Source of the DNA: Microvelia longipes
Taxonomy: Eukaryota; Arthropoda; Insecta; Hemiptera; Veliidae
Assembly: GCA_018340805.1 (NCBI GenBank)
Contig: JACMZG010001908.1
Span: forward strand, 18,214,722 to 18,278,721
Reading direction: 5' to 3'
Length of the DNA stretch: 64,000 bases
Positions within the stretch are counted from its first letter, which is position 1, and each line of letters opens with the position of its first letter. Below are positions 14,706 through 42,234 of the stretch, one piece after another. The notes under the pieces are model-generated. The model saw nothing but the letters and a program-made list of their open reading frames with translations, had not been told where the DNA came from and searched no databases. A program made the position numbers and the translations under genes.

Positions 14706-16133
14706 TGATTTCCAGAACCAAGGTTAGCGGAAATTATCTTGATGATTTCTTTAAAAATTCTACCCTTTTCTGGTTATTTGTTGAGTTTGGTGTTCGAGTC
14801 TTCTAGCATTTTTTTGATATTCTTAATATTAGATGAAAACAGAGTGTTTATATCCCTTTGATAACAATCTTAATCTTCAACACGACCTTTAGATATTAAA
14901 ATTCATTCATTTAAAAAACTTCCCCTGTGCCTAATGTCCCTCTTTCCTTATTTAATTGTTTACTCCCGTGCTCCTTACCTACGATCGCAAGTGCTTTGTT
15001 TTTTACCAAGTTGAGTAATGCAAAATTCTTATTTTTCTCAGTTCTGTAACATTACGTCACTCTTGTGACGCAAAGTCACTTTTTCTCAAATTCATAAATA
15101 TAAATGGAATAGTTACTAAGTTGATAAATATATAATTTGTATTTCTCGGGTGTTATATTTACGTCCCTGGAGAGCTAAAGAGATAAGTTTTAACTTAAAG
15201 AAATCTCTTGGGGCATATTAAGTTGGAAAATTGTTGTGGATTTCAGGCTCATTATTTTATTTTTAAATCCTACTTGAAAACATTTTAGGTTTTTCCTAAG
15301 AATACGTTGGTTTTTTGCGAAAATTGGGAAAAAATGAAAATTGAAAAAAGTTTAATTTGGAAAAATCCTACGAATAGAATGTTTTGCAATTTTTTTTCTT
15401 TTAAAGAAAATTAAACGAAACATTTTCCAACCCTTAATGCGAAGAGAAAATGTTTAAAGCAAAGGATATGCTGTAGTATTAAAAAAAATGTACCGATTGC
15501 TAACATTTTTAAATTCCAATGCCAGTAAACAGTTATTACTTTAACGAGTTTTCCTGTACTTCGGGTTCAATTTTTTAAAATTTTCCTCTTGAAGTATGAT
15601 GTTATTAAGTCTTTGCTGTCGGTGAAGTGAAAACTTCTACTTGTTGCCCGTTAATTTAGCTTTCCTCTTAGGCATGAAATGATGAAATCTGTAGGATTTC
15701 CATCTTTATGGGACATTTCGTCAGAATACCATCTAGCATGGTATCTTAAATTTTGGGAGTATTATAATTTTTTGAATAAAAATCAAATTATTGAAGTTAA
15801 TAATTGTTTCAAATGAAAAACGTATAATACCATCTCAGTCTAGAATTTTATTGTGTGGAATGAAAATTTGAAAATCTCTTTGTCTTTGTTAAATCTAGAA
15901 ACATTGCTATTTAGGTTTATTTATTATTGCTAATAGGTTAGCTATATTAGGTTTAGGTGTATTATACATTTCACTCTCTCCCCTTTTATAACTGAAGAGT
16001 CTTTGCTTGGATATTATGTTATCTCAAAGCTAAATATCGGCATAATTTATTCGGATTTTTTTATTATTTTCTCCTCTTTATGTTTATTTTAACAAAAATA
16101 TCTAATGTTTAGATGGTTATGTTGGTCTTCTAG

Positions 16134-16255
16134 GCACTAGTTCAAGCCAGGACAGGGAGAAGGGAGATGAGGCTGATGAAGATGTCTGGTCAGAATGGGG
16201 TAGGATCGTTAACGACTGGGAGCAGACCAAAAAGAAAAATAATAACTATATCAAG
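16134..16255 (+). CDS. Evi5: EVI5 exon 2 (pre-TBC acidic segment)
   Basis: Acceptor TTCTAG|GC at 16134 and donor AAG|GTACTG at 16256. The exon supplies two bases to the split serine codon and then 40 residues. The core DVWSEWGRIVNDWEQTKKK matches the region just in front of the TBC domain of EVI5 family members (D-[LI]-W-x-x-W-x-x-I-[VL]-N-[DE]-W). It ends in phase 0, as required by exon 3. Confidence 0.9.
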
Positions 16256-16719
16256 GTACTGTTCTAGATTATTCTTAATATAGTAATGATCAGTCATTAT
16301 GGTCACCATGATCATGGTTATGATCAGTTAAAAGCATCCATGGAATAGAAATTTAAACTTTTTAGTTAACTGAACTTTTATTGTAGTATAATTGTCTAAA
16401 CTTAAGGATTTGAAAACTGAACCTTTCTTATATTTTGAAGCAATCTATATTAGAATTAAGTTCTAGTCTGCATTAATAGGCATGGTTATGATCAGTTAAA
16501 AGCCTGTCGAAAATCAGGGGGACAAGGAATTCTATCGGTCCATTAATGGCCCTACCTTGCAAAATTCAAAATGAACCCATATAATTCATTTTCTCCCTTG
16601 TTTTTTTACTAGCTGTCAATTGATATAACCTTATTTAAATAAATAGTTTAGTTGTTTATCTTAACACTAAATTGACAAGGTAGTAAAGGTTGTAAAATTC
16701 ATCTGACGTTTTACCTCTG

Positions 16720-16935
16720 GAGGTCAAAGATACTGGAAGTTTTACTTTGGAATGTAAAAGTCAAAAGCAGTTCCACTTCTAGAGGTACAAGTTACCGGAA
16801 GTTCTACTTCTAAAGGTAGAAGTTATCGGAAGTTCTACTTCTAAAGGTAGAAGTTACCGGAAGGTCTACTTCTAAAGGTAGAAGTTACCGGAAGGTCTTC
16901 TTCTTAAGGTAGAAGGTACCAGGAGTTTTATTTTT
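16720..16935. repeat. Minisatellite, about 30-bp unit
   Basis: Six to seven diverged head-to-tail copies of a unit containing TCTACTTCTAAAGGTAGAAG followed by TTACCGGAAG. Each unit is internally palindromic (CTTCTA with TAGAAG), so each could form a small hairpin. It lies just after EVI5 exon 2. Confidence 0.75.
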
Positions 16936-18910
16936 GGAGGGTTACTTTGCAACATTCAAAGACGAAATATTTATTTTTGTTCTCATAAGAAGCAAGATAA
17001 AGATATCTCTGATCCATTAGACGTCAAATCTATGATCCACTGTGTCTGTGTCATAAGACCTTTATCTTTTTACTAATACGGTAATTTTGACGAATTTATG
17101 CTTGACAGCAAGTTTTTCCTTTTTTAAGATTTAATTTAATTTTTATTTTTGATAAATAATTCTGTAAGTAGTTTTAATTTCGTAAATATAATTATTCTTT
17201 TGAATGATTTGTCTTAAAAATTGGAAATATCATCACATCTTTTCCGCTACAAGGCTCTCTATTATGGATCAGAAAGAGCAACTGCAAGGGTTCAGAAATA
17301 TGGTTACATTTTCCCTCTCGACCCTAAAAATATCGAATTACTGAAATATATTGGAAAATATCCTTCCCATATTTTCATAATTTATCTGAAAATTTCTTGT
17401 AATATTTTTTCTTTTTTGTAAATTTCGACTAGAATAAACATTTTAAGTTAAAACTAAAGCAAAAAGTTTGGGTGAATCTGTTGTTGTTAAGTCCCTAAAG
17501 CTTTTAATAGAGTCAGCTTATAATATTTTACTTAGTTAGTAATAGCAAAGTAAACTTTATTTTTTTTATAATTTTACTTTGTACTCTGAAATATACTTTT
17601 ATCCCTGTTCAAAAAGCTTTAACGAATTTTAATAAAAGCATGCGAGACCGAGACATTATCAAGCAGAAAAATTGTTGGTTTTAGAAGTTCTTACCGTAGA
17701 TAAAACATTACAAGATTTCTAAGACATTATAATTCTGCATAGTATATTTTTTACTTTTCCTCACGTCCGTAAAGTAATGTGTTCACCCTAAAAATCCGAG
17801 ATTTTATCAGAATTATCTATTTTAAAAGTTTTTGTGGTTTTCATTTTGATGTCTAACTGTATGGCTGTGTGTAAATGTGTTCCTGTTTCACGCATATCAG
17901 CCTCTTTCTTTTACTAAAGAGTTGAAGTTAGGCAAGATATAAAACTTTGGTCTATTGCTAGACTTTGGTCCTATTGTTCTTTCATCATAATTTAAAAAAA
18001 ATATAATTAAATATTAAAAAACTGAACAACGTAGTTGAAATTGGACAACAATTTATGTCTATAAATGATAAACAGATCTACAAAATTTAAAGTTCTTTTA
18101 ACCACGACTTTTAGAAGTCAGGGAATGTTCAAAAACATTACCCTTATGAGATCGTCGGCATTAAAACGTTAGAGGTGGGAACTGGAGGATCGATTAAGCT
18201 TGTCTTATTTGTTTCAAAAATATATGTTTGTCCATGTTTTATTAAAAAATTAACTCCGATTTATTATATTTTAGTAAAAAGATCTCGATGGACTTGATTT
18301 TCAACTATTTCTTATTTCTACATTACAAATTCATTTAACCTTGACTTTTTAACTCTTAGGTAACTGTCAAAGACCATAACTTTGTTTTAAGCAAAACATA
18401 GGGATTAAATAGAACATGTATTTCTTATTTTTTTGTTTATTAAAAATATATATTTTTGAAAAAAATAGTTATAACACTCTTAATACTAAAATAACAGTTG
18501 AAATTTAATGGAGTTTTATTTCAAAAAAACAATTTTGTTTATTCAAATTCACTATCTCTTCAATCTTTTTTGAAAATCATCTGATTGATGTTACCAAGGA
18601 GGCTTACTTATACTACTAGAGGGAGAATAGAAGAACTATTATCATTGCCTGGATAGCTTGGTACCATAACGGTACATTGGTGTCGCCATTATTTATTTTT
18701 TATGTATTCATTTTGATTTCTCATCATTTTTTGGCCATTTAGTCTTAAATTAAGTAAAACATAATTTTAACGAGTTTCTATTATTATCTATAGCATATAT
18801 TCTTTAGTTGTTTGTGTTTATAAAGTTGTTTAATGTGACATTACTGAAAAATGTCTGCTGTTAGTTGGGTGTATTATAAATATATGCGCCCGGAGAAGTT
18901 GTAGAAGGGT
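16936..18910. other. Non-coding, EVI5 intron 2 start
   Basis: AT-rich sequence with no gene, array or transposon end that I recognise. Confidence 0.5.
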
Positions 18911-18916
18911 TGGGAG

Positions 18917-18922
18917 TTTATT
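18917..18922 (-). promoter_or_regulatory. AATAAA poly(A) signal candidate, distal, deaminase gene
   Basis: AATAAA on the minus strand, 45 bases after the stop of the third C-terminal exon copy (18967). Its spacing suits a 3' end for transcripts that include that copy. In AT-rich DNA such hexamers also occur by chance. Confidence 0.35.
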
Positions 18923-18966
18923 GTCTCTGTTAAGTTGGAGTAAGTATAGTTATAGTACCTAATAAA

Positions 18967-19132
18967 TTATGCCACACTACCAAAAGCCACTCTAGTCCTT
19001 CCTCTAGTAATATAAGTCTGTTTGGTTGTAACACTGTTGAAACTAAAGTTGAATTTTTTCTTTGGGTTAGAAGTCCAGCATTCGAAAGACCTTGGCTTGT
19101 AGAACGTGTTGTCCCCAGTAACTGGATCAGCT
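18967..19132 (-). CDS. Candidate alternative last exon (copy 3) of the deaminase gene
   Basis: After ATCAG| at 19133 on the minus strand, the two bases CT complete a split codon with the last G of the deaminase core exon (phase 1), giving Ala, and the frame then reads DPVTGDNTFYKPR and stays open for 55 codons in all to TAA at 18967. The opening is nearly identical to ADPVTGDRLTFYKPR in the main last exon, so this is a tandem duplicate of that exon's 3' part with a different, basic C terminus (SNPKKKFNFSFNSV). An AATAAA follows 45 bases later. It may be an alternative terminal exon or simply 3' UTR. The pyrimidine tract before the acceptor is weak. Confidence 0.45.
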
Positions 19133-19212
19133 GATTTTTAGCGTATGTAATATTTGATGATAACAGTTGATTGTTTCAGCTCAAGTTATGTCTTTCCATT
19201 AAGTTATAAAGT

Positions 19213-19268
19213 CTACCTTACACCTTTATAAGGTCTCAGCTTATAGAACGTGATTATGTCTCTAGTAG
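19213..19268 (-). pseudogene. Decayed last-exon duplicate (copy 2) of the deaminase gene
   Basis: Middle copy of three. The acceptor TTTCAG| at 19269 gives the same phase as copy 3. The frame reads ATRDIITFYKLRPYKGVR and stops at TAG. It aligns with ADPVTGDRLTFYKPRNY of the main exon, but the conserved DPVTG is lost and the tail is cut short. Downstream sequence still resembles the tail of copy 1 (AATGGAAAGA against CTATGGACAGA) with stops. Confidence 0.5.
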
Positions 19269-19290
19269 CTGAAATTATTTTATAGCTTGT

Positions 19291-19296
19291 TTTATT
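19291..19296 (-). promoter_or_regulatory. AATAAA poly(A) signal candidate, proximal, deaminase gene
   Basis: AATAAA on the minus strand, 22 bases after the TGA at 19318. It would end transcripts using the main last exon. Confidence 0.35.
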
Positions 19297-19317
19297 TAAT
19301 TAAAAGATGTGATTATT

Positions 19318-19517
19318 TCAACTGAAGTTTAGTCTGTCCATAGAGTTTAAAAGCCCGTCGTTTCCCCTGTAATTCCTTGGTTTGTAGAATGTCAGTCTAT
19401 CACCAGTGACTGGATCAGCTGTTATCTCTTCTAATAGTATTTCTCTAGTGACTGCTGCCCACTCGCCATCCCAGTGATCTCTTTCCGGGTCTTCTATTAC
19501 CTGAGCGTGAGTCATAC
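19318..19517 (-). CDS. AID/APOBEC-like deaminase, last exon (main form)
   Basis: The acceptor TTGCAG| before 19517 leaves GT, which with the final G of the previous exon rebuilds a Gly codon. The frame then runs 65 residues to TGA at 19318. It is acidic and Trp-containing (VIEDPERDHWDGEWAAVTRE, then ILLEEITADPVTG, then a basic Tyr-rich end FYKPRNYRGN). It has no catalytic motif and forms the C-terminal extension after the deaminase core. The exact phase agreement with the core exon is the main reason for calling it. Two degraded or alternative copies of its second half follow in tandem. Confidence 0.75.
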
Positions 19518-20150
19518 CTGCAATGAAAGAAGATCAATTTTAAAGCTAAGGTTTAACTAAACAAATTACAGAGATAATGCTTTTTAAGGAAGTACATAGC
19601 TCAATAGATATTTTCCAAAAAATGCCCATTATACTAATTGTAGGTTGTCATCTGTACAATTTTAGCCACAATAGGCATACACATTGTTTAGTTATATATA
19701 ATTTTATTAGTTTAATTTATTTTATTAACTTTATTTTATCTTTCCTTAAGGAAACAACTAATTTTATTTTAAATTATATTTCTAGTTTTTTCGCTTTGTT
19801 AAAAAATCTAGTACAATAAAAGGCCATTCAACAATGAAGCAAATACCTAACTTCTTGTGATACTTTGCGTCGTCTCTTTCTCTCATTCGGCGCTGTAGCT
19901 TAAGCTAGAAGCCTCCTGAGCTATTGTATTGATTTATACAATATTTCCTTCTTTGTTTGTTTGGATATTTCATTTTTTTTTTCTTTTTTCTCTTAAAATA
20001 GTTTTATGAACCTATATTTCGGAATATACAACCTAATTTTTTTACACAATATCATTTTATAAATAGAAGAATCTGTTTTATAGCTCTAATAAAAAAGGGG
20101 TCTTAGCTTATTTTCGTATTAAACGAAACCGTGAAAGGGTTGTTCTAGAA

Positions 20151-21542
20151 CAGAAATACGCAAAGTGTGGTCCGCTGACCCTTGGGGGTCCATATAACAA
20201 TTTTCAGGGAGTCCGTAAGCCAACAAAAATTATGGCAACAAAAAATATAAAACATCTAAAGTTAGTGATATTAGCAATTTCCTTTTAACAATTTTTTTAC
20301 TTTTCCTTATTTATACCGCAGGTATGTATTACTAATCCTCATTTATACCGTAGTTATATAGGAAAAGTATTGTAATTGGAAAAAATCCGAAACCAGAATG
20401 ACACCGGATTTATCAGTTTCAGGTGTTTTTAAGTCCGCCTGAGTGGTTTTTACAAAGTCGTATGTGTGTGTGTGTGTTTCTGTGTAATCATCGTACCTCC
20501 TAGTGTATTTACACTAGAGAGTTGAAACTTCGTAAAAATCAGTCTACCGCTGCAGTTGTGCTATTCGGAAAATAATTTGTATATGACGTCATTAACCTGC
20601 AATAATGACCCAGTGAAAACTTGGAAAAATCATAAAACGTGGAAAAATGATGCGATCTGATTTAAATTTAGTTCTCATGTAGCTATATGGTTAAGACTGA
20701 CGTATGTGCCAGTCTTAATAGTTGTATCTTATTATCAGCATTAGTTCAATTTTTATCAAATGACTTGTGTACGTTTTTAAAAAATCGAAAAATAATCCAA
20801 TTTAGTTGACATGGTATACTCTTGTATACCATAATAAATTTTTATTTATTATTATTTTTCACCCCATGTTTCGTTTCAATACGACAAGTATATCTTAGAT
20901 TTTTGTATGATCATAACAGTTAAGCAGCATTGACTAAGGTCAGTCCTACATGGATGACCGCTGAGAATAAAACGTGTTGCAGTATAAATTAGGAAAAAGG
21001 ATGAGCGTAGTGAATCTGATGTAATAAGGAAAAGTTCCGAGGTACCCCAAACCCGATTTTTCATTTATCGATCTGAAAATAAATATTTTTGGTTACCAGT
21101 TTGCTATAATTTTAAATTGTATAATATTTAATTTTATACTAAAAAAATAAAAGGAACGCGATTAATTTTTTAATCATTGAAATAATAACGAAGTATCTAA
21201 TCTTTGATGCCAACATTCATCAGCTTGATTTAGCACCGACGTATGGGTATGGGTTACACCCATAGTATAAGTATACGGTATGGGTTTTGGTTTAAAACTG
21301 TTTTTAATTATTTAATTCTTATTCGTAGTTAAAGTGTCCCGTATTTAAAGTCTTCAGTTTTTTTTTCATTTATTTTTATTTCTTCAATTTATTAGCACGT
21401 TTTTATCATGAGTCGTTGGTTAAAAACAATTTCAGTAAAAATCCTGGTCTTGAAGATTTAAAATCAGATATGGTTGGGGGTCCAGCAAGTACCGTTAAGT
21501 CAAAAGGGGGTCCACAGAGCACTGAAAATTTGCGTTTTCTTG
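20151..21542 (+). mobile_element. Non-autonomous hAT-type element with 8-bp target duplication
   Basis: Left end CAGAAATACGCAAAGTGTGG, followed by TCCGCTGACC. Right end, reverse complemented, begins CAAGAAAACGCAAATTTTCA and later contains TGTGGACCCCC. The pattern of CAG start, CAAAGTGTGGTCCGC and GGGGGTCC blocks is characteristic of hAT (Charlie-like) termini. The flanks are TTCTAGAA at 20143-20150 and again at 21543-21550, a perfect 8-bp duplication. The 1392-bp interior has no transposase. It carries TGACGTCA (20584-20591), a GTGTGTGTG tract and the segment shared with several other copies in this window. It sits in the intron of the minus-strand deaminase gene. Confidence 0.88.
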
Positions 21543-21674
21543 TTCTAGAACATATAACTAAGTTGTTGTGTTATGCATTTGTTCATTTTAACACATTCTT
21601 CCTAATTTATAAGAAATCCGAGTGAGTATAAGAGTAATGGAATAAGCAGTTATAAAACTTAATTCTTCTTTTAC

Positions 21675-21898
21675 CTAATTTACTAGTAAGAATATCCCAT
21701 TGTTCTCTTGACCAGGTACCAATGTCCACCATCGGATGTCTGGCTAATCTCGCCAATGCTCTGGCTTCTCTTGATCTGTTATGTAGATACACAGATGTGA
21801 AATGGATCTGGAGCTTGATGTTGGTCGATGTGACTAGGTCTAATAACGAATCACTGCACTCGGCGCAAGGCGACTGTGATAAATACATCTCCACCTCT
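21675..21898 (-). CDS. AID/APOBEC-like deaminase, core exon with PCxxC
   Basis: Acceptor TTTTAG| before 21898; the first base completes a Lys codon begun in the previous exon. The donor TTAG|GTAAAA leaves phase 1. The 74 whole codons contain MYLSQSPCAEC: Cys 95 and Cys 98 of the assembled protein would bind zinc, and the SxSPCxxC form is that of AID/APOBEC rather than of free-nucleoside deaminases. After a helix (SDSLLDLVTS) comes strand LQIHFTSVYL, like the FxxRLY strand of APOBECs, then an Arg/Ala-rich helix and VDIGTWSREQWDIL, matching the parallel beta4-alpha4-beta5 order. Expected reaction: cytosine deamination in nucleic acid; the substrate is unknown. Confidence 0.85.
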
Positions 21899-22717
21899 CT
21901 AAAATCATAAAAATTACGTAAATTTTGGTGCTGTTAGATAGTTCATTTTACTTCTTTGGTGAATGGTGCATAAAGAAGTATTTAAAATGTTTAGAGTTAA
22001 AATGATATTTTGATTAAAGGGCTCTGTATTCATTTTGATTAAAGAAGTTTCAATTTAATATTTATGATTATGATATTTCGTTTTCCTGAAGCAATTTATA
22101 TTATCATTAATTGAACTCAAACAAATATAATTATTAAAACTCGTTTGCACACTTTTTCTTTTGCTAGAAGTATTAATTTAGGATAAAAGCTCGGTAATGT
22201 CTGTTATAAAGATATTAGTACCAAACTGAGGGCGTTAGGACTTTATAGCGTAGTGTATTGTAACTCACTCTTATCACGCTATCTGATCCTTTTAATGAGT
22301 TCTAGAAATAAATAGTCTTGACACGCCTTATTTTTGTGAGATTTCTCTCTAATTTTGAGGAGAAATGAACCTTTTAATTTTTCGGCGACAGGCATTAATG
22401 GTATTAGTATTGAGAGGTTGTGCCTAGGAAAAGTGCATATCTAGCATAGTCGAGATATACTCTTGTCAATTCCTAGATATGACTACAGCAGTACCCAGGT
22501 TTTTCTGGGACTAATGCAGTCTCTTAGATAGCAATTGTATGCTTCTCAGTATTATCTTGGATGTTTCCTAGGTACTATTTTATTCCAGTCCATAGTTTGA
22601 AAATAATATATTATTAAATTTTGCTGATAGTTGGAACTTTCGGCAGAATATTTCCATCTTTCTATAAAATCATGACTCTCCCACTATTGTTTTCAATAAG
22701 CCAATCTTTAAACTTAC

Positions 22718-22968
22718 TTTGGTTTAACCTCAGTTATCTCCTTAATGAGATGTTTTTCAACGTGTCCATACTTTCCGTTCAGCTTGCAAGCTCCAGCCCA
22801 TGCCTCTCTGACAGCTTCTAGTCCAGGAAGGAGCATTTTAGCGTAACCAAACGTAGTCACAACGAGTCTTTTGCCATCAGGTTCTCCCCGAGCGTTGTGT
22901 AGGTAGGATGAGTAGATCTCTTCGTTTGTCGCCCACTCTTCAGTTACTAACTGCTGCATTTCTGGATC
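22718..22968 (-). CDS. AID/APOBEC-like deaminase, exon with HxE catalytic motif
   Basis: The exon begins after TTTAG| at 22968 (DPEM...) or at its first Met, ATG 22959; an in-frame TAG just upstream excludes reading further into the flank. It ends at the strong donor CAAA|GTAAGT, phase 2. It encodes strand-like KRLVVTTFGYAKML, a loop or helix and, near the end, KYGHVEKHLIKEI: His 69 would bind zinc and Glu 71 would be the proton shuttle. With the next exon the spacing is HVE-x22-PCAEC, within the deaminase range. If ATG 22959 is the true start the whole protein is 221 residues, similar to single-domain AID/APOBECs. An upstream first exon, for example a signal peptide, cannot be excluded. Confidence 0.8.
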
Positions 22969-24837
22969 CTAAACAAATGTATGCTTTATAGAATAAATAA
23001 GACTCCTAAAATTGTTTAAGTAGTTGTCATTACATTTTTTTATATAATTAAGCTTCAACCATGAGAGTATGTATAAAATAATAGATCAACACTCTTCTTA
23101 GGAATCTTAATCAGCCAAATAAAGATCAATATTACAAATATTAAATCTATATTTAATATTTATTTATTATTTAATAAAGAGTTAATACCGATTTGTATGT
23201 ATCAATAGATATATCAATATAAATAGATATCAATAAATACATCAATAGTAGATTAATAGTAAAGACCAAATAGTAAATCAATAGTCCACCTACGATTTTT
23301 TATCAACCAAATATACCCGCAACCTTTTGCCTGGAGAGACTTAAGCTTTCAACTACCATTTTTTTCAATAAATTTATAAAACCATTGGAAAAATCGTTTA
23401 TTTTTATGATAAAGTGTAAGCAACTTGAACAATATCTTATTATTTATAAACGAACAACTATTTACAAACTGTTATACAAAATTAAGTAGCTTCAAACACT
23501 TCGCTCGATTCTTCCTGTTGGTGAAATTTGATCTTTAAAAGAAAGTTTAGTGACATCTCGGGTCATCATTCTATTAATTTTATAAATATATAAAATAAGC
23601 CTACCATACTAAATAATGGTAGGATTGGTAAGGCGGCTAAATGGTCTAGATTGCTATATTTTATAACCTTTCTGATGATAAACTGCTCTGTTTGTTCTGG
23701 TTAGAGTTCGAATCCTAGTCTGGATGGTTTCTTTTTAACTAGTTTTTTTGGTGCATAGTTTGTTATTAGTGTTTTACCAGCGTTAGTAAACATTTCCCTA
23801 ATAGCTTAATATACTTGGCTACTAAATATCCTTGGTGCTACTTAATATAAATTGAACATTTCGTTGCTTCTCTCTTATTTGCTACTAGTATCACTAATAA
23901 AAATTGGAATACTAATTTATCCTAATGATAATAAGTTTTTACCTACTTTGGACTCTTGGTGCTTTATAGATAAGATAAGTGCTTCATTACTTAACAATTA
24001 AAACATCATATGTACCTGTTTTTTTCACTGCTTGAAATTTTGCTGAATCGTCTTAATTTAGTAACCGCACTTTGGTCACACCGGAATAGGGTTTATTATT
24101 TTTTAATGCTTATAATTCTATTTTGATTTCAAACTTCTGATTAAATTAAATTTTTAAGTTTCTTTGGTAGCAACATTGATTTAATAGAACTCACATGTTT
24201 TCATTATGTTGAGTAGACTAGCTTAACACTTTATTTTGTAATTAACATTATACAAGGTTAAGTAATTCTATTTAAAATTATGAATAAATGAATTTAACTC
24301 TATGAATGAATGAATATTTATTGGATCATTAGTTTGTTTCACATTATCTTTATAAAACATTTAACGCATAGAAAAGATAAAAATTACTTATTAATATATA
24401 TAAAAACACTACAAGCACGAGTTTTAACTGAACTGCATGTGCCACTGTTTTTTCTAATTATGCTAGTTTCGTTAATTATTATTTTATCTATCATCGTTTA
24501 TTTAATTAATTAAATTAAAATTCATAGTAATAATTTTAATGCAATATGACAAAAAGAATAAATTGTATGAAAATTACTTTTAAAATCAAGATATATGCAT
24601 ATGAATATGACTTGGGATGAAATAAAATTCTTTTATTTATGATAAATATCTTGCCATTTTTTTATGATTCCATAAAAATTGTTTCAGATTCTATAGAAGC
24701 TCTCAATTGTTAAAAAATAAATTATTTGGTTCGACTCCTGCTTCTTCTGATAATTTTTTGTCGTTTTGTTCACCTTAAGAAATCCGCTAATCATTTTAAC
24801 AATTTGATTCGAACAAACTGAGCTTTAAATTCTTGTT
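22969..24837. other. AT-rich non-coding region upstream of the deaminase gene
   Basis: Contains a tRNA-like segment at 23625-23727. A minus-strand 25-codon frame (23569-23492) could be a first exon but has no supporting motif. Nothing else is recognisable. Confidence 0.4.
23625..23727 (+). repeat. tRNA-derived SINE head or degenerate tRNA-like sequence
   Basis: Shows an A-box-like GGCTAAATGGTCTAGA (23635-23650) and a good B box AGTTCGAATCC (23705-23715), spaced about 55 bases apart, followed by an AT-rich tail. The acceptor stem does not pair well and the anticodon arm is unclear, so this is not called as a functional tRNA. Confidence 0.4.
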
Positions 24838-25050
24838 AAAGGAGTAAATAATGTGCATAGTCTGTTATAGCAAATTGTTAAAGTAGTGAATTATGTGCAC
24901 GCAGTCTGTTATAGCAAATTTTTAAAGGAGTGAATTATGTGCATAATCTGTTATAGCATATAGTTAAAGGAGTGAATTATGTGCATAGTGTGTTATAGCA
25001 AATTGTTAAAGGAGTGAATTATGTGCACGCAGTCTGTTATAGCAAATTAA
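24838..25050. repeat. Minisatellite, about 46-bp unit
   Basis: Five head-to-tail copies of a unit with GTTAAAGGAGTGAATTATGT followed by GCA...GTCTGTTATAGCAAAT. Copies alternate between GCATAG and GCACGCAG forms, suggesting a higher-order pair. Confidence 0.8.
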
Positions 25051-25052
25051 AA

Positions 25053-26340
25053 AATCTCGGGACTTTTTCTTAACATACCGAATTCACTACGCTCAGCTCT
25101 CTTCTTCGGAATGGTTCCGCTCGTCCTCAGAACATTAAAAATCACATCTCATTAGCGATTTTTTCAAAGAAAATTCGCTAAAACCACCAAATTTTACTAA
25201 ACACGCCTTCGGACTCGCTTCGCTTTCGGTTTGATAATAAATACATTAACAAATAACAACACCAAAATCTCTCCACAAGACCTTTATTAAAACCAGAGCC
25301 GGCTTTCGACCTCACGATCATCATCAGTGCCAGAGTGTTGAAGAAAAAAAATCTTAGTCTGACTTTTTAGGCTAGAAAGTCTATAAGAATCCTATATGAC
25401 TCTGCCTAAAAAGTCAGACTAGGATTCTCCTTCTTCAACTCTCCGGCACTGATGATGATCGTGAGGTCGAAAGCCGGCTCTGGTTTTAATAAAGGTTTTG
25501 TGGAGAGATTTTGATGTTGTTGTTTTTAGCTGTGTTTACTCCACTGCTCAGTGTTCTGTTAATAAATACATTAGTTTTATTCCCTGCGGTCACCCATCCA
25601 TTAATTGACCTCGCTCGATGCAGCTTAACTTTTATGATACAACATAAAACATAGATATACTTGACTTATTGAAACAAAACTTAGTATACTAATTTATTAC
25701 GTTAAGAATACGCTTGTACCAAATTTGAACTCAATTTGATTTTTTTATTTTTAATTTTTTTTTAAAAAACGTATTCAAGTTATTCCATAAAATTGAACTA
25801 ATGCTGATAATGAGATGAAACTGATGTTAGTCTTATACGTGGCTGCATGCGTGCCAAATCTCAAACCGATTAATAATTTTTCCGCGTTTTATGAATTTTC
25901 CATATTTTTTCTGTCAAAAATATATATATATGTATGCAAATATGTATATATGTAAATATATTATATTATATACTATATACTGATTCATATATAATGTAAT
26001 AAAATTAATATAATGTATAAAATTAATTAAAAATATGTACAATTAAAAAAACTTTGAATGGCGTTACATAAAAATCATTTTCCGGATATCGTAACTAGAC
26101 CCAAAGATGATTTTTGTAGTAAGTTTCAACTTTCTAGTATAAATGTATGTACTGGAGATACGATAATAACAGAAACACACAAATACAGTGAGACAAAACA
26201 CCTATGTGTGAAAACACATAAAGGGCCTTAAAACATCTAAAACGGATAATGTCGGTAACATCTCGGATATAGATTTTTCGCTAGCAGCATAATTTTCCAA
26301 TAAATTATGCCTACGGTATAAATGAGGAAAAGTAAAATAT
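25053..26340 (-). mobile_element. Copy of the dispersed hAT-type family, inverted and interrupted
   Basis: In opposite orientation it carries the same landmarks as 20151-21542: the CGCTTCG-type motif near its left end, GCGGTCACCCATCCA, TTATTACGTTAAGAATACGC, CTAATGCTGATAATGAGATG and a right end matching ATGAGGAAAAGTA. It has diverged, the TGACGTCA site is mutated, and a fold-back element (25249-25559) has inserted into it. Confidence 0.65.
25249..25559. mobile_element. Fold-back element with 14-bp target duplication and hammerhead-like cores
   Basis: Flanked by TAATAAATACATTA at 25235-25248 and again at 25560-25573. The two arms are inverted copies: AAAATCTCTCCACAA...CCAGAGCCGGCTTTCGACCT on the left and its complement on the right, ending in AGAGATTTTGATGTTGTTG. 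Each arm contains CTGATGATGATCGTGAGGTC followed by GAAA (25449-25472 plus; 25327-25304 minus). The CTGATGA...GAAA pair with a possible GATC/GGTC stem resembles the hammerhead core found in Penelope-like retroelement ends. No protein is encoded. Confidence 0.65.
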
Positions 26341-26689
26341 ATGCATTTTCTTTGTAAAATCTTATTCTTAGTAAAGTCGAAGTGTTGCTGAGTATAGACA
26401 ATAACACATTAACCGAATTTTTAACTTAAAGCCAACATTTGTAATTTACGTAATAAGCTGTAAGTATAAATTCCAGTATTTTCTTGATAAATGTAAGTCG
26501 TGATTCGGTATGAATGTGTAACAGATTACGAATAACAAGGTCAGCATGTTTGGAAAAAGACAATAATTAGTTCGTTGACTCAATTACACTATGGGTATTA
26601 CTACTTATATTTACTGTAATTTAAGTTTGTTACGTGTCTTTTATTTACTCTTTACGAACTTATTTGAAATTTTAAGCGTATAGACAACT

Positions 26690-27180
26690 ATTCGTATTAT
26701 AGTATAAACAATTTTAAAAAGTTAAGTATAATTCATAATCATATTACAGTATGAACTATTTTAATTGATTACGTATGATTCTTATTCGTATTACAGTATT
26801 ATCTATTTTCATTGATAAAGTATAATTCTTATTCGTATTATAGTATTAACTGTTTTAATTGACTAATTATAATTCTTATGCGTTTTACAGTATTAAGATT
26901 AATTATAATTCTTATGCGTTTTACAGTATTAACTATTTTAATTGATTAAGTATAATTCTTATGCGTTTTACAGTATTAACTATTTTAATTGTTAAGTATA
27001 ATTCTTATGCGTTTACAGTATTAACTTTTTTAATTGATTAAGTATAATTCTTATGCGTTTTACAGTATTAACTATTTTAATTGATTAAGTATAATTCTTA
27101 TGCGTTTTACAGTATTAACTATTTTAATTGATTAAGTATAATTCTTATTCGTATTATAGTATTAACTATTTTATTTAATT
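26690..27180. repeat. Minisatellite, about 47-bp unit
   Basis: About ten copies of a unit containing TTGATTAAGTATAATTCTTA then TGCGTTTTACAGTATTAACT. Central copies are nearly identical and outer ones diverge. Confidence 0.8.
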
Positions 27181-27638
27181 AATAAATCATGAAATATTAT
27201 AAAAGTATATATTAAATTATTATACATTTTATTAATTAATATATCATATAAGTAAATATTAAATAAAACTATGTAATGAAACGTAATTATCAATTTTTTA
27301 GTGTTAATTAATATTGAAAGATATTATGGTTAATTATATTTTTTTTATAGATGAACAAAAATAGTTCAAAGATTTCAAAGAACAACAAAAGAATGTGACA
27401 AAAAATTAAACGTAAAATATGGATTCCTAAACAGCTACTATTAAGTAGTATCTGTTAAACCTGCTACTGATTATTAATTTTATTAATGTAGTAACTTAAA
27501 CAACTACCTATATGATTACTGCTATTAATGTAGTGACTTTAACAACTACATATATAATTACTACTGTTAATGTGGTAACTTTAACTACTACCAGTGGCGT
27601 AGCCAGGATTTAATTTCGGGAGGGGCTGAATGTTAAAC

Positions 27639-27762
<124 letters not shown>

Positions 27763-28169
27763 TTGTATATTGTTCAATGTTTTCAAATTATTTTTATATC
27801 TCTCAATTTCATTGTATATTTTTAGGGTTTCGAAGATAATCTTCGAAACCCTTATACTTTCTGTCGAGCGTCTGTCTGTCCGATTTCTCATCTCAGGAAC
27901 TACAATAGCTAGGAAGTTGAAACTTGGTATACATGTGTAACTATTTTATCCAACAACAGGAAAAATATAGCCAACTATCTCACACGCGCATCTGTCGATT
28001 TATGAGCGAATGCGCATATTCGCAAAAAATAAATATTTTTTTGAAAAATCATGTGGTTGATACCCCACATGTATTGTAGGTACCGATGGGTAGAACACAA
28101 ATATGCATCGCTTTTTCAAAATGGCGGCTATTACACCCGCCAAAAATATCGAAAACCCCCAAAAAATCA

Positions 28170-29410
28170 CATAAAGGCGAGCGAAGCGAGCCCTAGAATA
28201 TTATGTTATGTCTTTACTCTATGCTATAAAATTAGGTTCTGATAAACATATACAAAAAGGCGAGCGAAGCGAGCCCATGAATTTCATGCCTTGTTTTAAG
28301 TGTTTCTCTTAAAGTAGGTATTGACAAACAAGCACATAAAGGCGAGCGATGCGAGCCCTTGAAGTTTATTTTATGTTTTAAATTTTTTTCTATATTTAGG
28401 TATCGACGAAAGTTTTATAAGCGAGCGAAGCGAGCCCTAGAATGTTATGTAAAAGTTTGATTCAATACTTTAAAATTGGCTAGTACCAAACAAGCACCTA
28501 AAGGCGAGCGAAGCGAGCCCTAGAATATTATGTTATGTCTTAACTCTATGCTATAAAGTTAGGTTCTAACAAACGTATACAAAAAGGCGAGCGAAGCGAG
28601 CCCTAGAATTTTATGTTATGTCTTTACTCTATGCTATAAAATTAGGTTCTGATAAACATATACAAAAAGCGAGCGAAGCGAGGCCATGAATAAAATAGGC
28701 CTTGTTTTAAATGTTTCTCTTATAGTAGATATTGACAAACAAGCACATAAAGGCGAGCGAAGCCAGCCCTAGTATTGTATGGTTATTTTTATTATATACT
28801 CTTAAGTAGGTACTGATATGCAAACACATAATGGCGAGCGAATCGAGCCCTTGAATTTTTTTTTACGATTTAAATTTTTCTCTAAAATTAGGTAGCGACA
28901 AACAAACATATATAGGCCAGCGAAGCAAGCCCATAATATTTAATAAAAATTTGAATTTATAGTTTAAATTGGCTAGTAGCAAGTTTATAATGGCGAGCCT
29001 CAATGTATATGTATAATGTTTTTTTTATTTCATACTTATAAGAAGGAAATGATAAGCAAACACATAAAGGCGAGTGAAGCAAGCCCTAGAACTTCATGTT
29101 GTATTATAATTATTTTTCCTAAAATCAGTACTAACAGACATATATAGGCGAGCGAAATGAGCCCTAGTATATTTGGTAAAATTATATTTTTACCCTGCGA
29201 AATTTGCTTATAACAAACATACAAATGAAATGAGCACTTATATATTTTGTTATCTTTTCAGTGTAGATTCTAAATTAGGTAATGATTTCTGATACACAGA
29301 AACGCAAGCGTAGCGAGCCGTGGAATATTATGTTATAACTTATTTATTTTTTCTAAAATTAGGTATCGACAAATACTAACATATAAGCGATTGAAGCGAG
29401 GCGTAGAATA
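28170..29410. repeat. Minisatellite array, about 82-bp unit, GCGAGCGAAGCGAGCCC core
   Basis: About fifteen units. Each carries AAAGGCGAGCGAAGCGAGCC followed by CTAGAAT and about 55 AT-rich bases containing AAATTAGGT and GACAAACA. The GC-rich core is better conserved than the spacer. Later units (after 28900) decay (GGCCAGCGAAGCAAGCCC and similar). Confidence 0.9.
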
Positions 29411-29696
29411 TTAAGTATATTGTATGATTGTATAGTATTAATACATTTTATTTATGAAAATATCTGAGAAACCCTTATAATGCTTACAAAGCAAGCACTT
29501 TGACGGATTTTTTTTTATATTATGATATTTATATTATAAGTTTATTGTTAAAAAATATATGTAATTTATTATTTTTATATATTTTTTATAGGTTTTATTT
29601 TTTTTTCACTCATTTATTGCGGGTTTAGGTTATGTAAAAATTTCGGGGGGGCTGAAGCCCCCTCAGCCCCCCCCTGGCTACGCCACTGACTACTAC

Positions 29697-30267
29697 ATAT
29701 ATAATTACTAGTATTAATGTAGTAACTTTAACAACTACATATATAAATATTACTATTCAGTGTATAAACCCTATTATAGATTTTATAAGTAAATAGATAT
29801 TACCTTAAAAATGTAATGAAGATATGGAAAATTATAATTTAGCTAAGTGTACAGATGCAGCCCGCAGATGTTCTCGAGGACAAGTAATGGGTCTGTCTGG
29901 ATATCTGCGATGTACTCTCAGTCCACTTATCTCTAAGATACCCTTTTGTAACCCTTTGAGGGGGGTATACATGTTTTATCTTAGCTTAAAATTTGTATCT
30001 TAACGGAATTGTTTTTATCTGGTTATTTAACCCGAAAAATTAGGTTTATCTTTTTGTATTGCTGAAAGTCTGGATATTGAACTATGACTAATGCATATTT
30101 GTTTCACAAACTTTTTAAAATTTTGCTTACCTTTCTCCTAAAAGGGAGAGAAAGCATTGCATTAGCGACACGGTTTTTTCTTATCTAATGTCGAGTATCA
30201 GTTTCTAATGATCCCAATAATCCTGGTTTGTATACATTGATTTTTTTAATATGCGCTGTATTTGTCA
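29697..30267. other. Non-coding, EVI5 intron 2
   Basis: The first 120 bases continue a short TAGTAACTTTAACAACTACA-type repeat that also precedes the hAT-like element (27480-27590). No gene seen. Confidence 0.45.
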
Positions 30268-30760
30268 ACATTTTTACATTTCCTTATTTATACCGTAGGT
30301 ATATAGAAAAGTATTACGTTTGCAAAAAATTCGAAACCGTCACCGGAAATATTAGGTGTTTTTAAGACCTGCTGAGTTGTTTTTACATAGTTGTCTATCT
30401 GTATGTGTGTGTGTTTGTCTGTTATCATCGTTGCTTATAGCGTATTTATGCTAGAGAGCTGAAACTTAGTATTAAAATCAATCTCTTGGTCAAGTTGTAT
30501 TATTCGTACAATATTTATTTATGACGTCATTAACCCATTAAATTCATATAACAAGGAAAATGTTTTGATCGTGTTGAGATTTGGAACGCATGTAAGTGAT
30601 ACATAAGACAAATAAATGTACCAAGTTTCATGTCATTATTAGCATTAGTCCAAATTTTTAGTTCCAAATGTCAAAAATCAATATAAGTTGAAATCTGCTA
30701 CCAGTGTATTTCTTTACTTAATAAATATGTTTACTAAGTTTCGTTTTAATTACGTCATAA

Positions 30761-30859
<99 letters not shown>

Positions 30860-31260
30860 TTTGCGTGTGTGTGGTTTTTGTCAGATCATAAAAGTTAAGC
30901 TACAGTGACCAAGGTCAGTCCCTGGTTGTATGACCGCCAGGGGAATGAAACGGATGTATTTTACTATTTAAGGACGAGGGAAACTAGTCTGAAGAAGTGT
31001 TGCAGTATCAATTTGGCGAATTGTATCATCTGAGAGCGAGCGAAGCGAGTCCGAAGTAGGTATTGTGAGCGTAACGGATCCGATGTAGTAAAGAAAATTT
31101 TCAAAGTACCCAGTAACCGAATTTTCAATATACCCTACAGCTCAAACGGCTGGTTTGATTATAATGAAGTTTGTTCTCAAAAATATACATTATTTCCTTA
31201 TAGCCTGTCCAAAGTTGGGGGAAAAAAGTTCCGAGGTACCCCGTTCCCGATTTCTTAAAT
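30268..31260 (+). repeat. Copy of the dispersed hAT-type family with (TA)n expansion
   Basis: Starts with TTATTTATACCGTAGGTATA as in the copy at 20151-21542, then the GTGTGTGTG tract and TGACGTCA (30522-30529). A long (TA)n run interrupts it at about 30755-30862. It resumes with the GACCAAGGTCAGTCC, GAGCGAGCGAAGCGAGTCC and GTTCCGAGGTACCCC blocks. A further fragment with the same terminal blocks is at 31905-31995. Confidence 0.7.
30755..30862. repeat. (TA)n microsatellite
   Basis: About 100 bases of TA dinucleotides with two small interruptions. Confidence 0.95.
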
Positions 31261-32130
31261 AAAAAAATGGATTCCAAATTTCCCATCGGTTAAACCTTTA
31301 ACTAAACGGATTAATTAGTGGCTACAAATTGTTTAAGGTTGAATAAACCGGTTTTACCCTGTTAAAGTTCTATCGTGGTTTGAGAGTTAAACTATAGCTG
31401 GGGGTATATTCGAGAAGAGAATGGGGTTGGAATGTCGGTCTAGAGGTCTAGGGTTAGGGTTGATGGATTTTATGGTTGAATCAGTTCCTGAGGAATGGGT
31501 GGTTAAGCAAGGCAATTGATTAACTAGAGGAAATTGAAATGAAAATCCGTGTTTTTCTGAAGTTCTAAACACATTATTAAGCGGGTTTTCCTTTTAAGCA
31601 TTGCCTTAGGACCGTCTAATCTTGCAGAGAAATTCCATTGGACGCATGGTTTTTTTTACTTTTACTTAATTTGATCACTTAAGTACTTATTATTACTTAC
31701 ATATTTTATTGTTAACATAAGTATCTATCTACTTAGTATTATTTAGTATATTGTACTTTAATGTTTATTTTCTAATTTTGTATTAATACTTAATATTTAT
31801 GTTATTACTCAAGATGATTTAAAATATATACTTATAAAATATGTAATTTAAATAGAGACGCAAGGGTCTCTACAGTTCAATTGTCTTTCTCTGTAGTTCT
31901 CGAATTGTATATTTTGAGGACGAGTAAAGCGAGTCCGATGTAGGGAAGACTCAATGTGATAAGGAAAAGTTCCGAGGTACCCCGTACCCGTTTTTTTAAA
32001 ATTATATTTTTACTTTTTCTCGCCTACTATCTAGGAAATGTTTATTGTTTTTGGTTTTATGTAGGACTATACGCGTGCTAATTTTCAAATCATTTTTTAA
32101 GTTTTATGAATTGTTAGGTCATTAATTATA
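31261..32130. other. Non-coding with hAT-family fragments
   Basis: Contains GAGGACGAGTAAAGCGAGTCC and GTTCCGAGGTACCCCGTACC at about 31915-31990, the terminal blocks of the dispersed family. The sequence to 32130 belongs to another copy, inverted. No gene. Confidence 0.45.
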
Positions 32131-32648
32131 GTACGTTCACACACACTTCTAGATCCGCGGATCGTATTTGGATACGATCTCTCAATACGGTAATATTAGC
32201 TATTGAACCTAGCGGAGGGGATCCGATCGCATACGCTAGAACTAGGGAGATGGAATCTAAATGGATCCCCCGATACGCTGTATGTACCTTTAGAGACGAT
32301 CGTATTTAACGAATAACCTTCTCGTCGAACTTTTTAATTTATTTTATTTCACTTCAATATTACCGTTTTTGATCAAATAACTTTTGGAATATTATTTTTT
32401 TTTTTAGTGTAACTTTATTATTATGCAAAGAAATCACAATTTAATTAAATATATTTTTTGTGTTAAACTTCCTTATAACCAAGAGTGAACCTGCACTATA
32501 AAAGACACGATGTTTTGGCGGGATCAGTTATCACGTAATCTCACTCGATCGACTAAACAAAGACGCTGTAAGAACCATGAAGTTAGTTGATCGTATTGCA
32601 TCCGTATCCAATACGATCGCCTGTTAAATACGCTGTGTGTGCGTAGTA
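32131..32648. mobile_element. Small inverted-repeat transposon nested in a hAT-family copy
   Basis: The left end GTACGTTCACACACAC and, reverse complemented, the right end CTACGCACACACAGCGTATT form short imperfect terminal inverted repeats. Subterminal GGATCGTATTTGGATACGATC and GATCGTATTGCATCCGTATC blocks are also inverted. GC content is much higher than in the flanks. The flanking sequence (GGTCATTAATTATA before, AATGATGGTTAATGACGTCA after) is a dispersed-family copy split by the insertion. The target duplication is unclear, perhaps TAA. Confidence 0.55.
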
Positions 32649-34955
32649 AATGATGGTTAATGACGTCATAATATTATTTTCCCCGAAAGTAAAATAAACC
32701 TAACGATTGATTTTGTACTAAGTTTCAATTCTCCAGCATAAACACACTGAGAGCTGCGACACTCACACGTATACTACAAGTAAAGAAATATATATACAAA
32801 TTAGGGAAACTTATATACTGACACATGTAACAAAATGCAGACCTGTCCGATCAGCTGATAGCTGGCTCAAAAATAAAAAATAGCTAAAATTAAAATAACT
32901 GCGCATGCGTCTTTTCGGATTTAGGGTTTTTTATTTAATTTTATTGGCAACCCTGATAACATTACGTGAGTTTTACATTTTATTGTATTTTCGTACTTTA
33001 ATGTGTACGTGATAATTTAATGATTTTGTATTAAATTCTGATAAGTAATTGTTATAATAATTTAGTAAAAGAAAAAGAGACACTATAGTAAAGATAAACC
33101 TCATGTTTTTATTAAGATTTTGAAAAAAATGCAGACGACAGTGTATCGCCTTAAAATTACGATTGCTTTTATTACATTAAAAAATAAGTTAAATTTGTTA
33201 AATTACTAATTACAATTAATATTTGAACGGGAAAAAACAAATATCATTTGCAAAAATGTATCAAGTTAAGTAGTACACACGAAAAAAAAAGTTAAATTAG
33301 CCGGTTGTTTTAAGTCATTTAAACGAACCTAGTATTTCAAGATTTGGACTTAAACCACTATTGGATGTGGTAAAATGTATTTCTTACACAAATTATTAAC
33401 ATTTTAAACTGAACTGTTCAAATAAATGCAATAAAAACAAAAAAATTTAGTACCGTAAATAGTTTGTTTACCTTTACTATAGGGTAAAACAAAATGGCCG
33501 CGGCCATAGGAAAATTTGAGGAGGTCTGACAGAAATCGCGTTTGTTTCCCTACTTGGTTTATATATTACTTTAACTACAAGACTCGTACACACACGCATT
33601 CAGATAGAAAACTTAAGTAATTCAGTTTTTCGGATTTTTATTACGAACACAATACTTTTCCTTTGTAATTACAGTATAGACGAGAAAAAGTAAATATAAA
33701 AATTAAATTAAAAATAATAAAACGATGCCAAATGAGAAAAATTGTTATTTAGATAAAATTGATAAATATTGTTGGATAAAATGTGATTGAAAACTGGAAA
33801 ATTGTTGGAATACCGTGTGGAAAACTGGGTTTCTTTTTAAGTTATCACTGGTCGATTTGAAAATCCTACATCTAGCTCTATATGGGCGGAATGATGCTGA
33901 AATCTCCCTACACAAGAGACAGATCCATGCTTCAAATAAAATACTGTTCTCTCCCTTCACACTGAAATAAATTTTCTTGTTCTTTCTTAAAATAATTTAC
34001 TTTTTACTATTAGTGGCATTCGTTATTAGAAGCACAATAATGATTTGTTTCGAACACGGTTTGTTTATGTTCTAATATTTATAACTTAACTGAAATAAAA
34101 TGATTAGTATCTTGACAACACGACCTAACCAATGAGCGTGTTTATTTAGTTTCTGCGCTACCAGCAATGCCACTTAGTCACTTGTTTCCTATGTATGTAT
34201 ATATCGGAAACACGCATTCCAAAGGAAATTCGCTCGGCCTACTGAACGCGGTGTCAGAATTATTTTATCTAATTAAAAACACCTGTAGCATAAAGTTCAT
34301 AGCAAGGTCAACGCGGCTCTGCGTATAACTTACCTTATACACCAGTGATCCCATGATAACTTGTGGTTTACAACTGAAGACTACATAGTGTTTTCTATTT
34401 TCTTTAATTAATCCTCCATTTTCTCACTTCGAGGTCAAGTGAATTCATTTAAAGTGATTTAGTATCAGGAATTTAGTCACCCTGATATTGTTATTTCCCC
34501 TCACCTACTACCATAGGTTTATAGGAAAAGTATTGTGTTGCCTCTGCAAATCTAAAACCAAAATTTAATCAGAAATATCTGTTCAGGAAGCTTTTTATTG
34601 TGACGTCTTTCTGTGAGTCGTGGGGTTCGAACCTTGGTACCGGCGATAATTTTTACTAAAAAATAATTCTTGCTTCGCGGAGATAGTAAAACATAAATTA
34701 GTCGAGTTTTATATTGAGGTTAATTAGGTCGATGGGTAACAGCTACGAAGACTTGGAACTTTAATTATGACTCAAACTGTGACTTGTGACTTCACTGATT
34801 TAAAAAAAATTGCTTGTAATTAGTTTAAGATTGGGTGTTCACCCATCAAATGACCCCAATCAATACTGCTTATCGTTCATTTTCTAATAAGAACTGGACG
34901 ATAAGCAGTTCTTTGCCGAAACGGTGTGATTCATGTCTTATTTCTTGTTGCGCAG
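32649..34955. other. Non-coding, EVI5 intron 2 end
   Basis: The first 120 bases are family repeat (TGACGTCA at 32661-32668). A B-box-like GGGTTCGAACC occurs at 34623-34633 without a convincing tRNA. No gene seen before the exon at 34956. Confidence 0.45.
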
Positions 34956-35084
34956 GAGATGGTCAGGAAGGGAGTGCCACAGCATTTCCGAGGCATGGTC
35001 TGGCAGCTCCTTTGTGATGCCCATAACTCACCAGAGAAAGACCAGTTTGCTGAGTATATCAAAGCCACATCACCCTGTGAAAAG
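34956..35084 (+). CDS. Evi5: EVI5 exon 3 (start of TBC domain)
   Basis: Acceptor TTGCGCAG| at 34956, donor AAG|GTAATG at 35085, phase 0 on both sides, 43 codons. EMVRKGVPQHFRGMVWQLLC is the first TBC motif (RKGIPxxxRxxVWxxL); then DAHNSPEKDQ, EYIKATSPCEK. It is a near-exact counterpart of the EVI5 opening of the RabGAP domain. The preceding intron is 18.7 kb and contains the antisense deaminase gene. Confidence 0.95.
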
Positions 35085-35394
35085 GTAATGGTATTCTTTT
35101 GGAATCTGTTTTACCTTTAGAAAATAAAGTGATTTTTTATTTTATTTTAAATAAGAGAGGTATGCATCAAGCTCAAATACATTGGTATGTTATTGCAACG
35201 TTAGGCTAAAGGTCTGCCTAATACTTTTCCCCTCTCCCCTCCCCGATTCCTTTAATCGAGTCTGTAACTGTTATTCACATCACTTCAGGCTAAATTTTTT
35301 CGTTAGACACCTAGACCCCCCCCCCTTAATCAAATCAATGGAAAGTGATACAAACAAGAAACTTTTGAGTTGAATAATAATTTGAAACGTAAAG

Positions 35395-35705
35395 CTTCTG
35401 GTATATTACTGAGGCATGAAGTAGGCTTGAGTTATATTTTATATGACATGAAGTAGGCTTCAGTTATATTTTATATGACATGAAGCAGGCTTCGGCTTTA
35501 TTACTGAGGCATGAAGTAGGCTTTAGTTATATTATATAAGACATGAAGCAGGCTTCAGGTATATTACTGATGCATGAAACAGATTTCTATTATATCACTC
35601 AGATATGGAAGTAGGTTCCAGGTTTATTATCCGAGTCATGTAGTTAGCTTCAGTTATATTATCTGAGGCATCAAGTAGGCTTTAAGTATTTTATCAGAGG
35701 CATAT
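35395..35705. repeat. Minisatellite, about 30-40-bp unit
   Basis: About nine copies of a unit with GGCATGAAGTAGGCTTCAGT followed by TATATTA or TATATTTTATATGA. Copies are diverged, more so toward the right. Confidence 0.75.
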
Positions 35706-42110: not shown

Positions 42111-42234
42111 GCTAGAAGCAAGTGAAGAATCAGATTTCATCGATATTTGCTGTACTTGTTTTGTTGCTTTTTTAATGGGAAGGTACAAGATTCCCTCATT
42201 TATGTAGCAATTATAAGGTCATAAACTTCATAAA

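What the first reader, a model, noticed from the sequence alone, without database searches (positions are those of the whole stretch)
19318..22968. AID/APOBEC-like cytidine deaminase gene in an apparent insect, antisense inside EVI5 intron 2
Three minus-strand exons join with exact phase agreement (2, then 1) into about 224 residues. The assembled protein has HVE (69-71), SQSPCAEC (91-98) and, after it, the FTSVYL strand and the VDIGTWSREQWDIL strand-helix expected of the AID/APOBEC branch. Family knowledge: this branch is well known in vertebrates and in scattered invertebrates, but I know of no established insect member, so it could be a lineage-specific mutator or antiviral/anti-transposon enzyme, or a transferred gene. 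The function is inference; the motifs and splicing are seen directly.
Basis: partly seen in the sequence, partly recalled or inferred. Interest (0 to 1): 0.88.

Follow-up and report, generated by a model that had tools for sequence, protein, structure and literature searches.

The report
Insect gene for an APOBEC-like deaminase
An insect chromosome carries one intact-looking gene for a relative of the vertebrate DNA/RNA-editing APOBEC enzymes, tucked backwards inside another gene, which suggests that mutation-based defence may exist in at least one insect.

Summary
Three minus-strand exons (22718-22968, 21675-21898, 19318-19517) with GT-AG introns join in phase (2, then 1) to 224 codons ending in TGA, 221 from the first ATG. 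The product passes the curated cut-off of eight Pfam families, all AID/APOBEC (best SNAD4, 6.7e-12). Exon 2 alone gives 2.5e-10; the 50 best rows of Foldseek and of VIA-align 2 for its AlphaFold2 model are all AID/APOBEC entries, at modest scores. The gene lies antisense in an EVI5 intron on a 64-Mb contig. The host is an insect: 43 odorant-receptor-family matches, one with the Orco C-terminus (recognition recalled). Three answered searches of the 664.6-Mb genome found only this locus. HVE and PCAEC are intact and no convincing signal-peptide exon was found, so the best reading is an intracellular, probably active polynucleotide cytosine deaminase, perhaps antiviral or anti-retroelement. Expression, activity, species, conservation and origin are untested. 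AID/APOBEC-like genes are reported in other invertebrates (and, recalled but unread, in arthropods): a new member of a known kind.

The parts
22718..22968 (-). Exon 1: first ATG at 22959 (CCAGAAATG), N-terminal region and the HVE half of the zinc/catalytic site (His69, Glu71 of the 224-codon joining); an acceptor-like TTTGTTTAG lies just upstream, implying an upstream, probably non-coding exon
   Evidence: SNAD4 rises from 40.9 bits (exon 2 alone) to 46 (joined); exon 1 alone has no Pfam match and its single-sequence fold is uninformative, pLDDT 44
21675..21898 (-). Exon 2: catalytic core SQSPCAEC, then strand FTSVYL, helix, strand VDIGTW, helix; order E-H-E-H-E-H
   Evidence: Pfam SNAD4 2.5e-10 for this exon alone; AlphaFold2 pLDDT 81 for the best of five models; AID/APOBEC entries in the 50 listed Foldseek rows and the 50 listed VIA-align rows
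19318..19517 (-). Exon 3: C-terminal region and tail, stop TGA at 19318-19320
   Evidence: no Pfam match on its own
21899..22717 (-). Intron 1 (819 nt), GT-AG, splits HVE from PCAEC
19518..21674 (-). Intron 2 (2157 nt), GT-AG; holds a hAT-like element (name recalled) with inverted ends at 20141-20164 and 21529-21552
19291..19300 (-). Overlapping ATTAAA/AATAAA poly(A) signals 17 and 21 nt after the stop codon
18960..19300 (-). Two decayed tandem copies of the last exon's 3' part (spacing 144 and 141 nt; residues TFYK recognisable)
   Evidence: (family D2)
16100..43500 (+). Host gene EVI5 (TBC RabGAP): exons at about 16.2, 34.97, 40.08 and within 43.1-43.5 kb; the deaminase is antisense between the first two. 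Later EVI5-like coiled-coil exons lie to about 62.6 kb
   Evidence: TBC Pfam match; motif scans with recalled EVI5/TBC motifs; later exons recognised by eye

Best explanation
This is a genuine, intron-bearing insect gene, single-copy as far as searched, for an AID/APOBEC-family zinc-dependent cytosine deaminase of about 221 residues. Shown: an intact reading frame with canonical splice sites, an HxE-PCxxC metal/catalytic motif, the core strand-helix order of AID/APOBEC in a predicted model, and a place on a chromosome-sized insect contig. Inferred: His69, Cys95 and Cys98 hold zinc and Glu71 activates water, so that cytosine in single-stranded DNA or RNA held by the loops around FTSVYL (loop 7) becomes uracil. 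Lacking an evident signal peptide it would act inside the cell, most likely mutating viral or retroelement nucleic acid; a housekeeping RNA-editing role is the next possibility.
Against: No transcript or activity evidence. The usual W of SWSPC (recalled; seen in the A3G/A3H alignments) is Q here. Exon 1 has no profile match of its own and could not be folded; joining it raises 7 of the 10 AID/APOBEC profile scores but lowers 3 (APOBEC4, AID, NAD2). Foldseek E-values of the model are 4.4e-3 at best, none under 1e-3; VIA Z stays under 8, where the tool warns of common arrangements; three of five models had pLDDT 42-45. PDB sequence matches are weak (best 0.003). The SNAD4 profile also rang, under its cut-off, in 2 of 14 prokaryote control genomes. 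Being single-copy is unlike the expanded antiviral APOBECs (recalled). Decayed exon copies lie downstream. No relative in another species could be examined.
Confidence: 0.68

Rival explanations
1. It is a secreted deaminase of the SNAD type whose signal peptide is on an unrecognised upstream exon; it would act on extracellular nucleic acid.
For: Best Pfam family is SNAD4; an acceptor-like site lies 9 nt before the ATG.
Against: The N-terminus from the ATG is not hydrophobic. In the 11 kb upstream (22969-34000) only two phase-0 ATG frames of at least 12 codons end at a donor scoring at least 7 of 9; they are of 12 and 20 residues, about 10 kb away, and both are fairly hydrophobic, so they are weak but not excluded. 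Scores for SNAD4, APOBEC_N and NAD1 lie within 6 bits.
Confidence: 0.12
2. It keeps the fold but is catalytically idle or has an unknown substrate, as APOBEC2 and APOBEC4 are in bacterial mutator assays.
For: APOBEC2 and APOBEC4 profiles score over their cut-offs; APOBEC2 heads the VIA table, tied with A3G and AID; some invertebrate relatives, and APOBEC2 and APOBEC4, were inactive in bacterial assays (PMC5956068, section 10).
Against: The metal-binding and proton-shuttle residues are all present.
Confidence: 0.25
3. It is a recently transferred vertebrate gene or assembly contamination.
For: AID/APOBEC genes are best known from vertebrates.
Against: It lies inside EVI5 on a 64-Mb contig. Best PDB sequence match to a mammalian APOBEC is only E 0.003 (0.0009 for a 153-residue piece); structural alignments show 20-31% identity. 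The intron falls between HVE and PCAEC, whereas vertebrate AID/APOBEC3 keep both in one exon (recalled).
Confidence: 0.03
4. It is a young pseudogene.
For: Decayed tandem copies of part of the last exon follow it; no expression data.
Against: All three exon frames, the four intron-boundary sites, the stop and a poly(A) signal are intact.
Confidence: 0.07

Closest known systems
SNAD4 (Pfam PF18750, Secreted Novel AID/APOBEC-like Deaminase 4, identified only in sponges according to PMC11004436, passage seen)
   Same: Best profile match, 46 bits, positions 19-119 of 130
   Different: No convincing signal peptide; the margin over APOBEC_N and NAD1 is under 6 bits, so subfamily is unresolved
Invertebrate AID/APOBEC-like deaminases SpAIDL (sea urchin) and LaAIDL (brachiopod), PMC5956068
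   Same: Invertebrate members of the same family with conserved active site; some are active polynucleotide deaminases (sections 9, 10)
   Different: Other phyla (that paper's tBLASTN of protostome genomes reported two hits, both brachiopod); sequences not compared here; LaAIDL1 has two domains, this has one
Vertebrate AID, APOBEC1, APOBEC2, APOBEC3
   Same: HxE-PCxxC site and core fold; 68-73 of 74 core residues superpose at 1.7-2.6 A
   Different: Identity 20-31% over the core; the AID profile stays under its cut-off (24 of 27.3 bits); zinc site split by an intron

Membership tests
AID/APOBEC clan | Score above curated cut-off of a clan profile | tested here: met
   Eight of the 12 families listed pass their cut-offs, all eight being AID/APOBEC families; AID and NAD2 stay under theirs
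AID/APOBEC clan | HxE and PCxxC zinc/catalytic motifs in order | tested here: met
   HVE at 69-71, PCAEC at 94-98
AID/APOBEC clan | strand4-helix4-strand5 core (parallel last strands) rather than the strand pairing of free-cytidine deaminases | tested here: inconclusive
AID/APOBEC clan | Cytosine deamination in single-stranded nucleic acid | not testable with these tools
   needs an enzyme assay
SNAD (secreted) subfamily | N-terminal signal peptide | tested here: inconclusive
   No hydrophobic N-terminus from the ATG; two weak short candidate exons about 10 kb upstream
AID (Pfam PF18767) | Score above curated cut-off | tested here: not met
   24 bits against 27.3; 26 for exon 2 alone
Free-cytidine/dCMP deaminases (PF00383; NCBIfam TIGR01355) | Score above curated cut-off | tested here: not met
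   14.9 bits against 25; 11.6 against 275

The most novel reading that the evidence does not exclude
An insect lineage keeps an active, intracellular, single-gene AID/APOBEC mutator that edits viral or retroelement nucleic acid, a mutation-based arm of insect immunity beside RNAi and piRNA, possibly with alternative C-terminal tails from the tandem last-exon copies.
Probability: 0.35. Interest if true: 0.8.

Novelty: new member of a known kind. Interest (0 to 1): 0.55.

Why it matters
Insect antiviral and anti-transposon defence is usually described through RNAi and piRNAs (general knowledge). An intact AID/APOBEC gene in an insect would extend mutation-based defence to this group, would make its absence or loss in other insects datable, and offers a single-gene system for asking what ancestral AID/APOBEC enzymes edited before antibodies existed.

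Tried and rejected
Homologue search in the 5.8-billion protein database: switched off. Relatives in viral contigs: 1 pattern match, none confirmed; in bacterial/archaeal genome contigs: 14 pattern matches, none confirmed; both scans reach close relatives only. Signal-peptide exon upstream: two weak candidates. Exon 1 fold: uninformative. NCBIfam: nothing near a cut-off. Free-cytidine deaminase reading rejected. One non-APOBEC chain (conjugal transfer protein TraF, E 0.85) is the last of 17 PDB matches; I take it as chance. A test for C-to-T/G-to-A hypermutation in retroelement copies and a mitochondrial COX1 search for the species did not complete. Papers: no paper in the held library has both 'Ctenocephalides felis' and 'APOBEC'. 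Searches touching insect, arthropod or invertebrate AID/APOBEC listed none that I recognised as describing an insect member; for most papers only title and abstract beginning were seen. Passages without such a claim were seen in PMC13428168, PMC2881922, PMC6650417, PMC7601171, PMC12211885, PMC13337447, PMC11599104, PMC5579523 and PMC6466128. Krishnan et al. 2018 (PNAS) is not held; that its abstract lists arthropods is recalled.

Full report
Observation. The minus strand of 19318-22968 carries three open stretches bounded by canonical splice sites. Exons of 251, 224 and 200 nt join in one open frame of 224 codons ending in TGA; the first ATG is codon 4, giving 221 residues. HVE lies at 69-71 and SQSPCAEC at 91-98. 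Moving the last acceptor two bases upstream breaks the frame. In sequence simulated from the introns' dinucleotides, frames of 66, 74 and 83 codons stayed open in 70, 46 and 26 of 20000 trials. Coding GC is 0.45, both introns 0.30; four EVI5 exon pieces of the same window have 0.40-0.52 (their boundaries are approximate). Poly(A) signals follow the stop by 17 and 21 nt.

What it is. Against Pfam, the product matches 12 families at E up to 10; eight pass their curated cut-offs and all eight are AID/APOBEC families: SNAD4 6.7e-12, APOBEC_N 2.9e-10, NAD1 4.2e-10, APOBEC4_like 2.2e-8, APOBEC2 2.8e-8, APOBEC4 5.2e-8, APOBEC1 1.2e-6 and APOBEC3 1.2e-6. AID (24 of 27.3 bits) and NAD2 (24.2 of 27) are under theirs; the general cytidine/dCMP deaminase family is at 0.025 and far under; Myf5 (0.1) is noise. 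Exon 2 alone reaches SNAD4 at 2.5e-10 with seven families over cut-off; exons 1 and 3 alone match nothing. Joining exon 1 raises seven of the ten AID/APOBEC scores (SNAD4 from 40.9 to 46 bits) and lowers three (APOBEC4 from 37.2 to 33.4, AID from 26 to 24, NAD2 slightly); the matched parts of these three profiles start after HVE. This favours the splice without proving it. By sequence alone the best solved structure is APOBEC3G, E 0.003, and all 14 chains listed are AID/APOBEC.

Where it is. The window lies on a contig of 64,166,213 bases in a 664.6-Mb assembly of 1470 contigs. EVI5-like + strand exons, found with recalled motifs, lie at about 16.2 kb, 35.0 kb and 40.1 kb, with a Pfam-confirmed TBC domain within 43.1-43.5 kb, so the deaminase is antisense in a large EVI5 intron. 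The assembly holds 43 matches to the odorant-receptor family 7tm_6, none in 14 prokaryote control genomes; the best lies in a frame encoding [23 protein letters not shown]...SGAKFFTVSLDLFASV, which I recognise from memory as the Orco C-terminus; that 7tm_6 and Orco are confined to insects is also recalled. The species was not identified. Three answered searches of the genome (SNAD4 and NAD1 profiles, the protein itself) found only this locus; the SNAD4 profile also rang under its cut-off in 2 of 14 control genomes, NAD1 in 0 of 14. Two further profiles (APOBEC_N, APOBEC4_like) did not complete, so a divergent paralogue is not excluded.

How it most likely works. From family knowledge, His69, Cys95 and Cys98 would hold zinc and Glu71 shuttle the proton in hydrolytic deamination of cytosine, with the loop after FTSVYL choosing the neighbouring base. 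That chemistry is inferred from intact residues, not shown. No signal peptide is apparent from the ATG, and a scan of 11 kb upstream found only two weak short candidates about 10 kb away, so an intracellular enzyme is more likely than a secreted one, although the best profile is a secreted subfamily; the margin over the next two profiles is under 6 bits. Relatives in sea urchin and brachiopod include enzymes active in bacterial mutation assays and enriched in immune-related tissue, and also inactive ones (PMC5956068, sections 9 and 10 read). The most economical role is mutation of viral or retroelement nucleic acid; an idle or differently specialised protein is the main rival. The stated odds overlap: a secreted or idle enzyme would still be a member of the family.

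Origin. Contamination and a recent transfer from a vertebrate are unlikely: the gene is in a host gene on a chromosome-sized contig, has host-like composition and two introns, is 20-31% identical to the solved (mostly primate) enzymes over the core, and has its zinc site split by an intron, unlike vertebrate AID and APOBEC3 (recalled). No close relative was confirmed in viral contigs or bacterial and archaeal genomes. Vertical descent with loss elsewhere, or an old transfer, cannot be separated here, because no other animal genome could be searched.

Known or new. AID/APOBEC-like deaminases outside vertebrates are established: PMC5956068 describes echinoderm and brachiopod members and reports, from its search of protostome genomes, two hits, both brachiopod; PMC11004436 (passages) and PMC8201067 (passages) place SNAD4 in sponges. 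The 2018 PNAS survey by Krishnan and colleagues is not held; I recall its abstract listing arthropods. The kind is known; an intact, chromosome-anchored insect gene is a new member as far as the papers seen here go, and no claim of first discovery is made.

Against this reading. There is no expression or activity evidence; the W of the usual SWSPC is Q; the last exon is followed by two decayed tandem copies of its 3' part, which may mean local instability; the fold evidence covers one exon at modest scores; and the gene is apparently single-copy, unlike the expanded antiviral APOBEC sets (recalled).

Noticed in passing
L023, L024, L025, L027, L030, L034, L040, L041 (starts of contigs C10, C50, C120, C240, C420, C720, C1100, C1200): 8 of 20 sampled contig starts hold long tandem arrays of mostly one tRNA gene (Ser, Met, Lys, selenocysteine, Glu, Met, Pro, Ala), units about 245-530 nt; 19 tRNA-Sec copies in 10 kb is striking, as several insect orders lack selenocysteine (recalled).
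   Followed up: partly
L037 (C900:1-10000): Tandem array of U2 snRNA genes, unit about 975 nt, 11 copies (one cut) in 10 kb.
   Followed up: no
L029:2347-4137 and L031:6231-8025: Compact 18S rRNA of about 1.79 kb beside a 5.8S match spanning the whole model; might help to name the insect.
   Followed up: partly
window 18960-19300: Two decayed tandem copies of part of the deaminase's last exon; by my reading both keep CAG|CT in the register that would join exon 2 in phase, so use as alternative last exons is conceivable.
   Followed up: partly
window 20141-21552: hAT-like (recalled) element with 24-nt inverted ends, 88% complementary, inside intron 2.
   Followed up: no
window 882-4829: Non-LTR retrotransposon on the minus strand: ORF1 with a sub-cut-off PHD-finger match, ORF2 with endonuclease and reverse transcriptase; an ORF at 882-1433 may be its 3' part.
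   Followed up: no
window 51276-51665: Mariner-type transposase N-terminal fragment (HTH_48, 2.8e-17).
   Followed up: no
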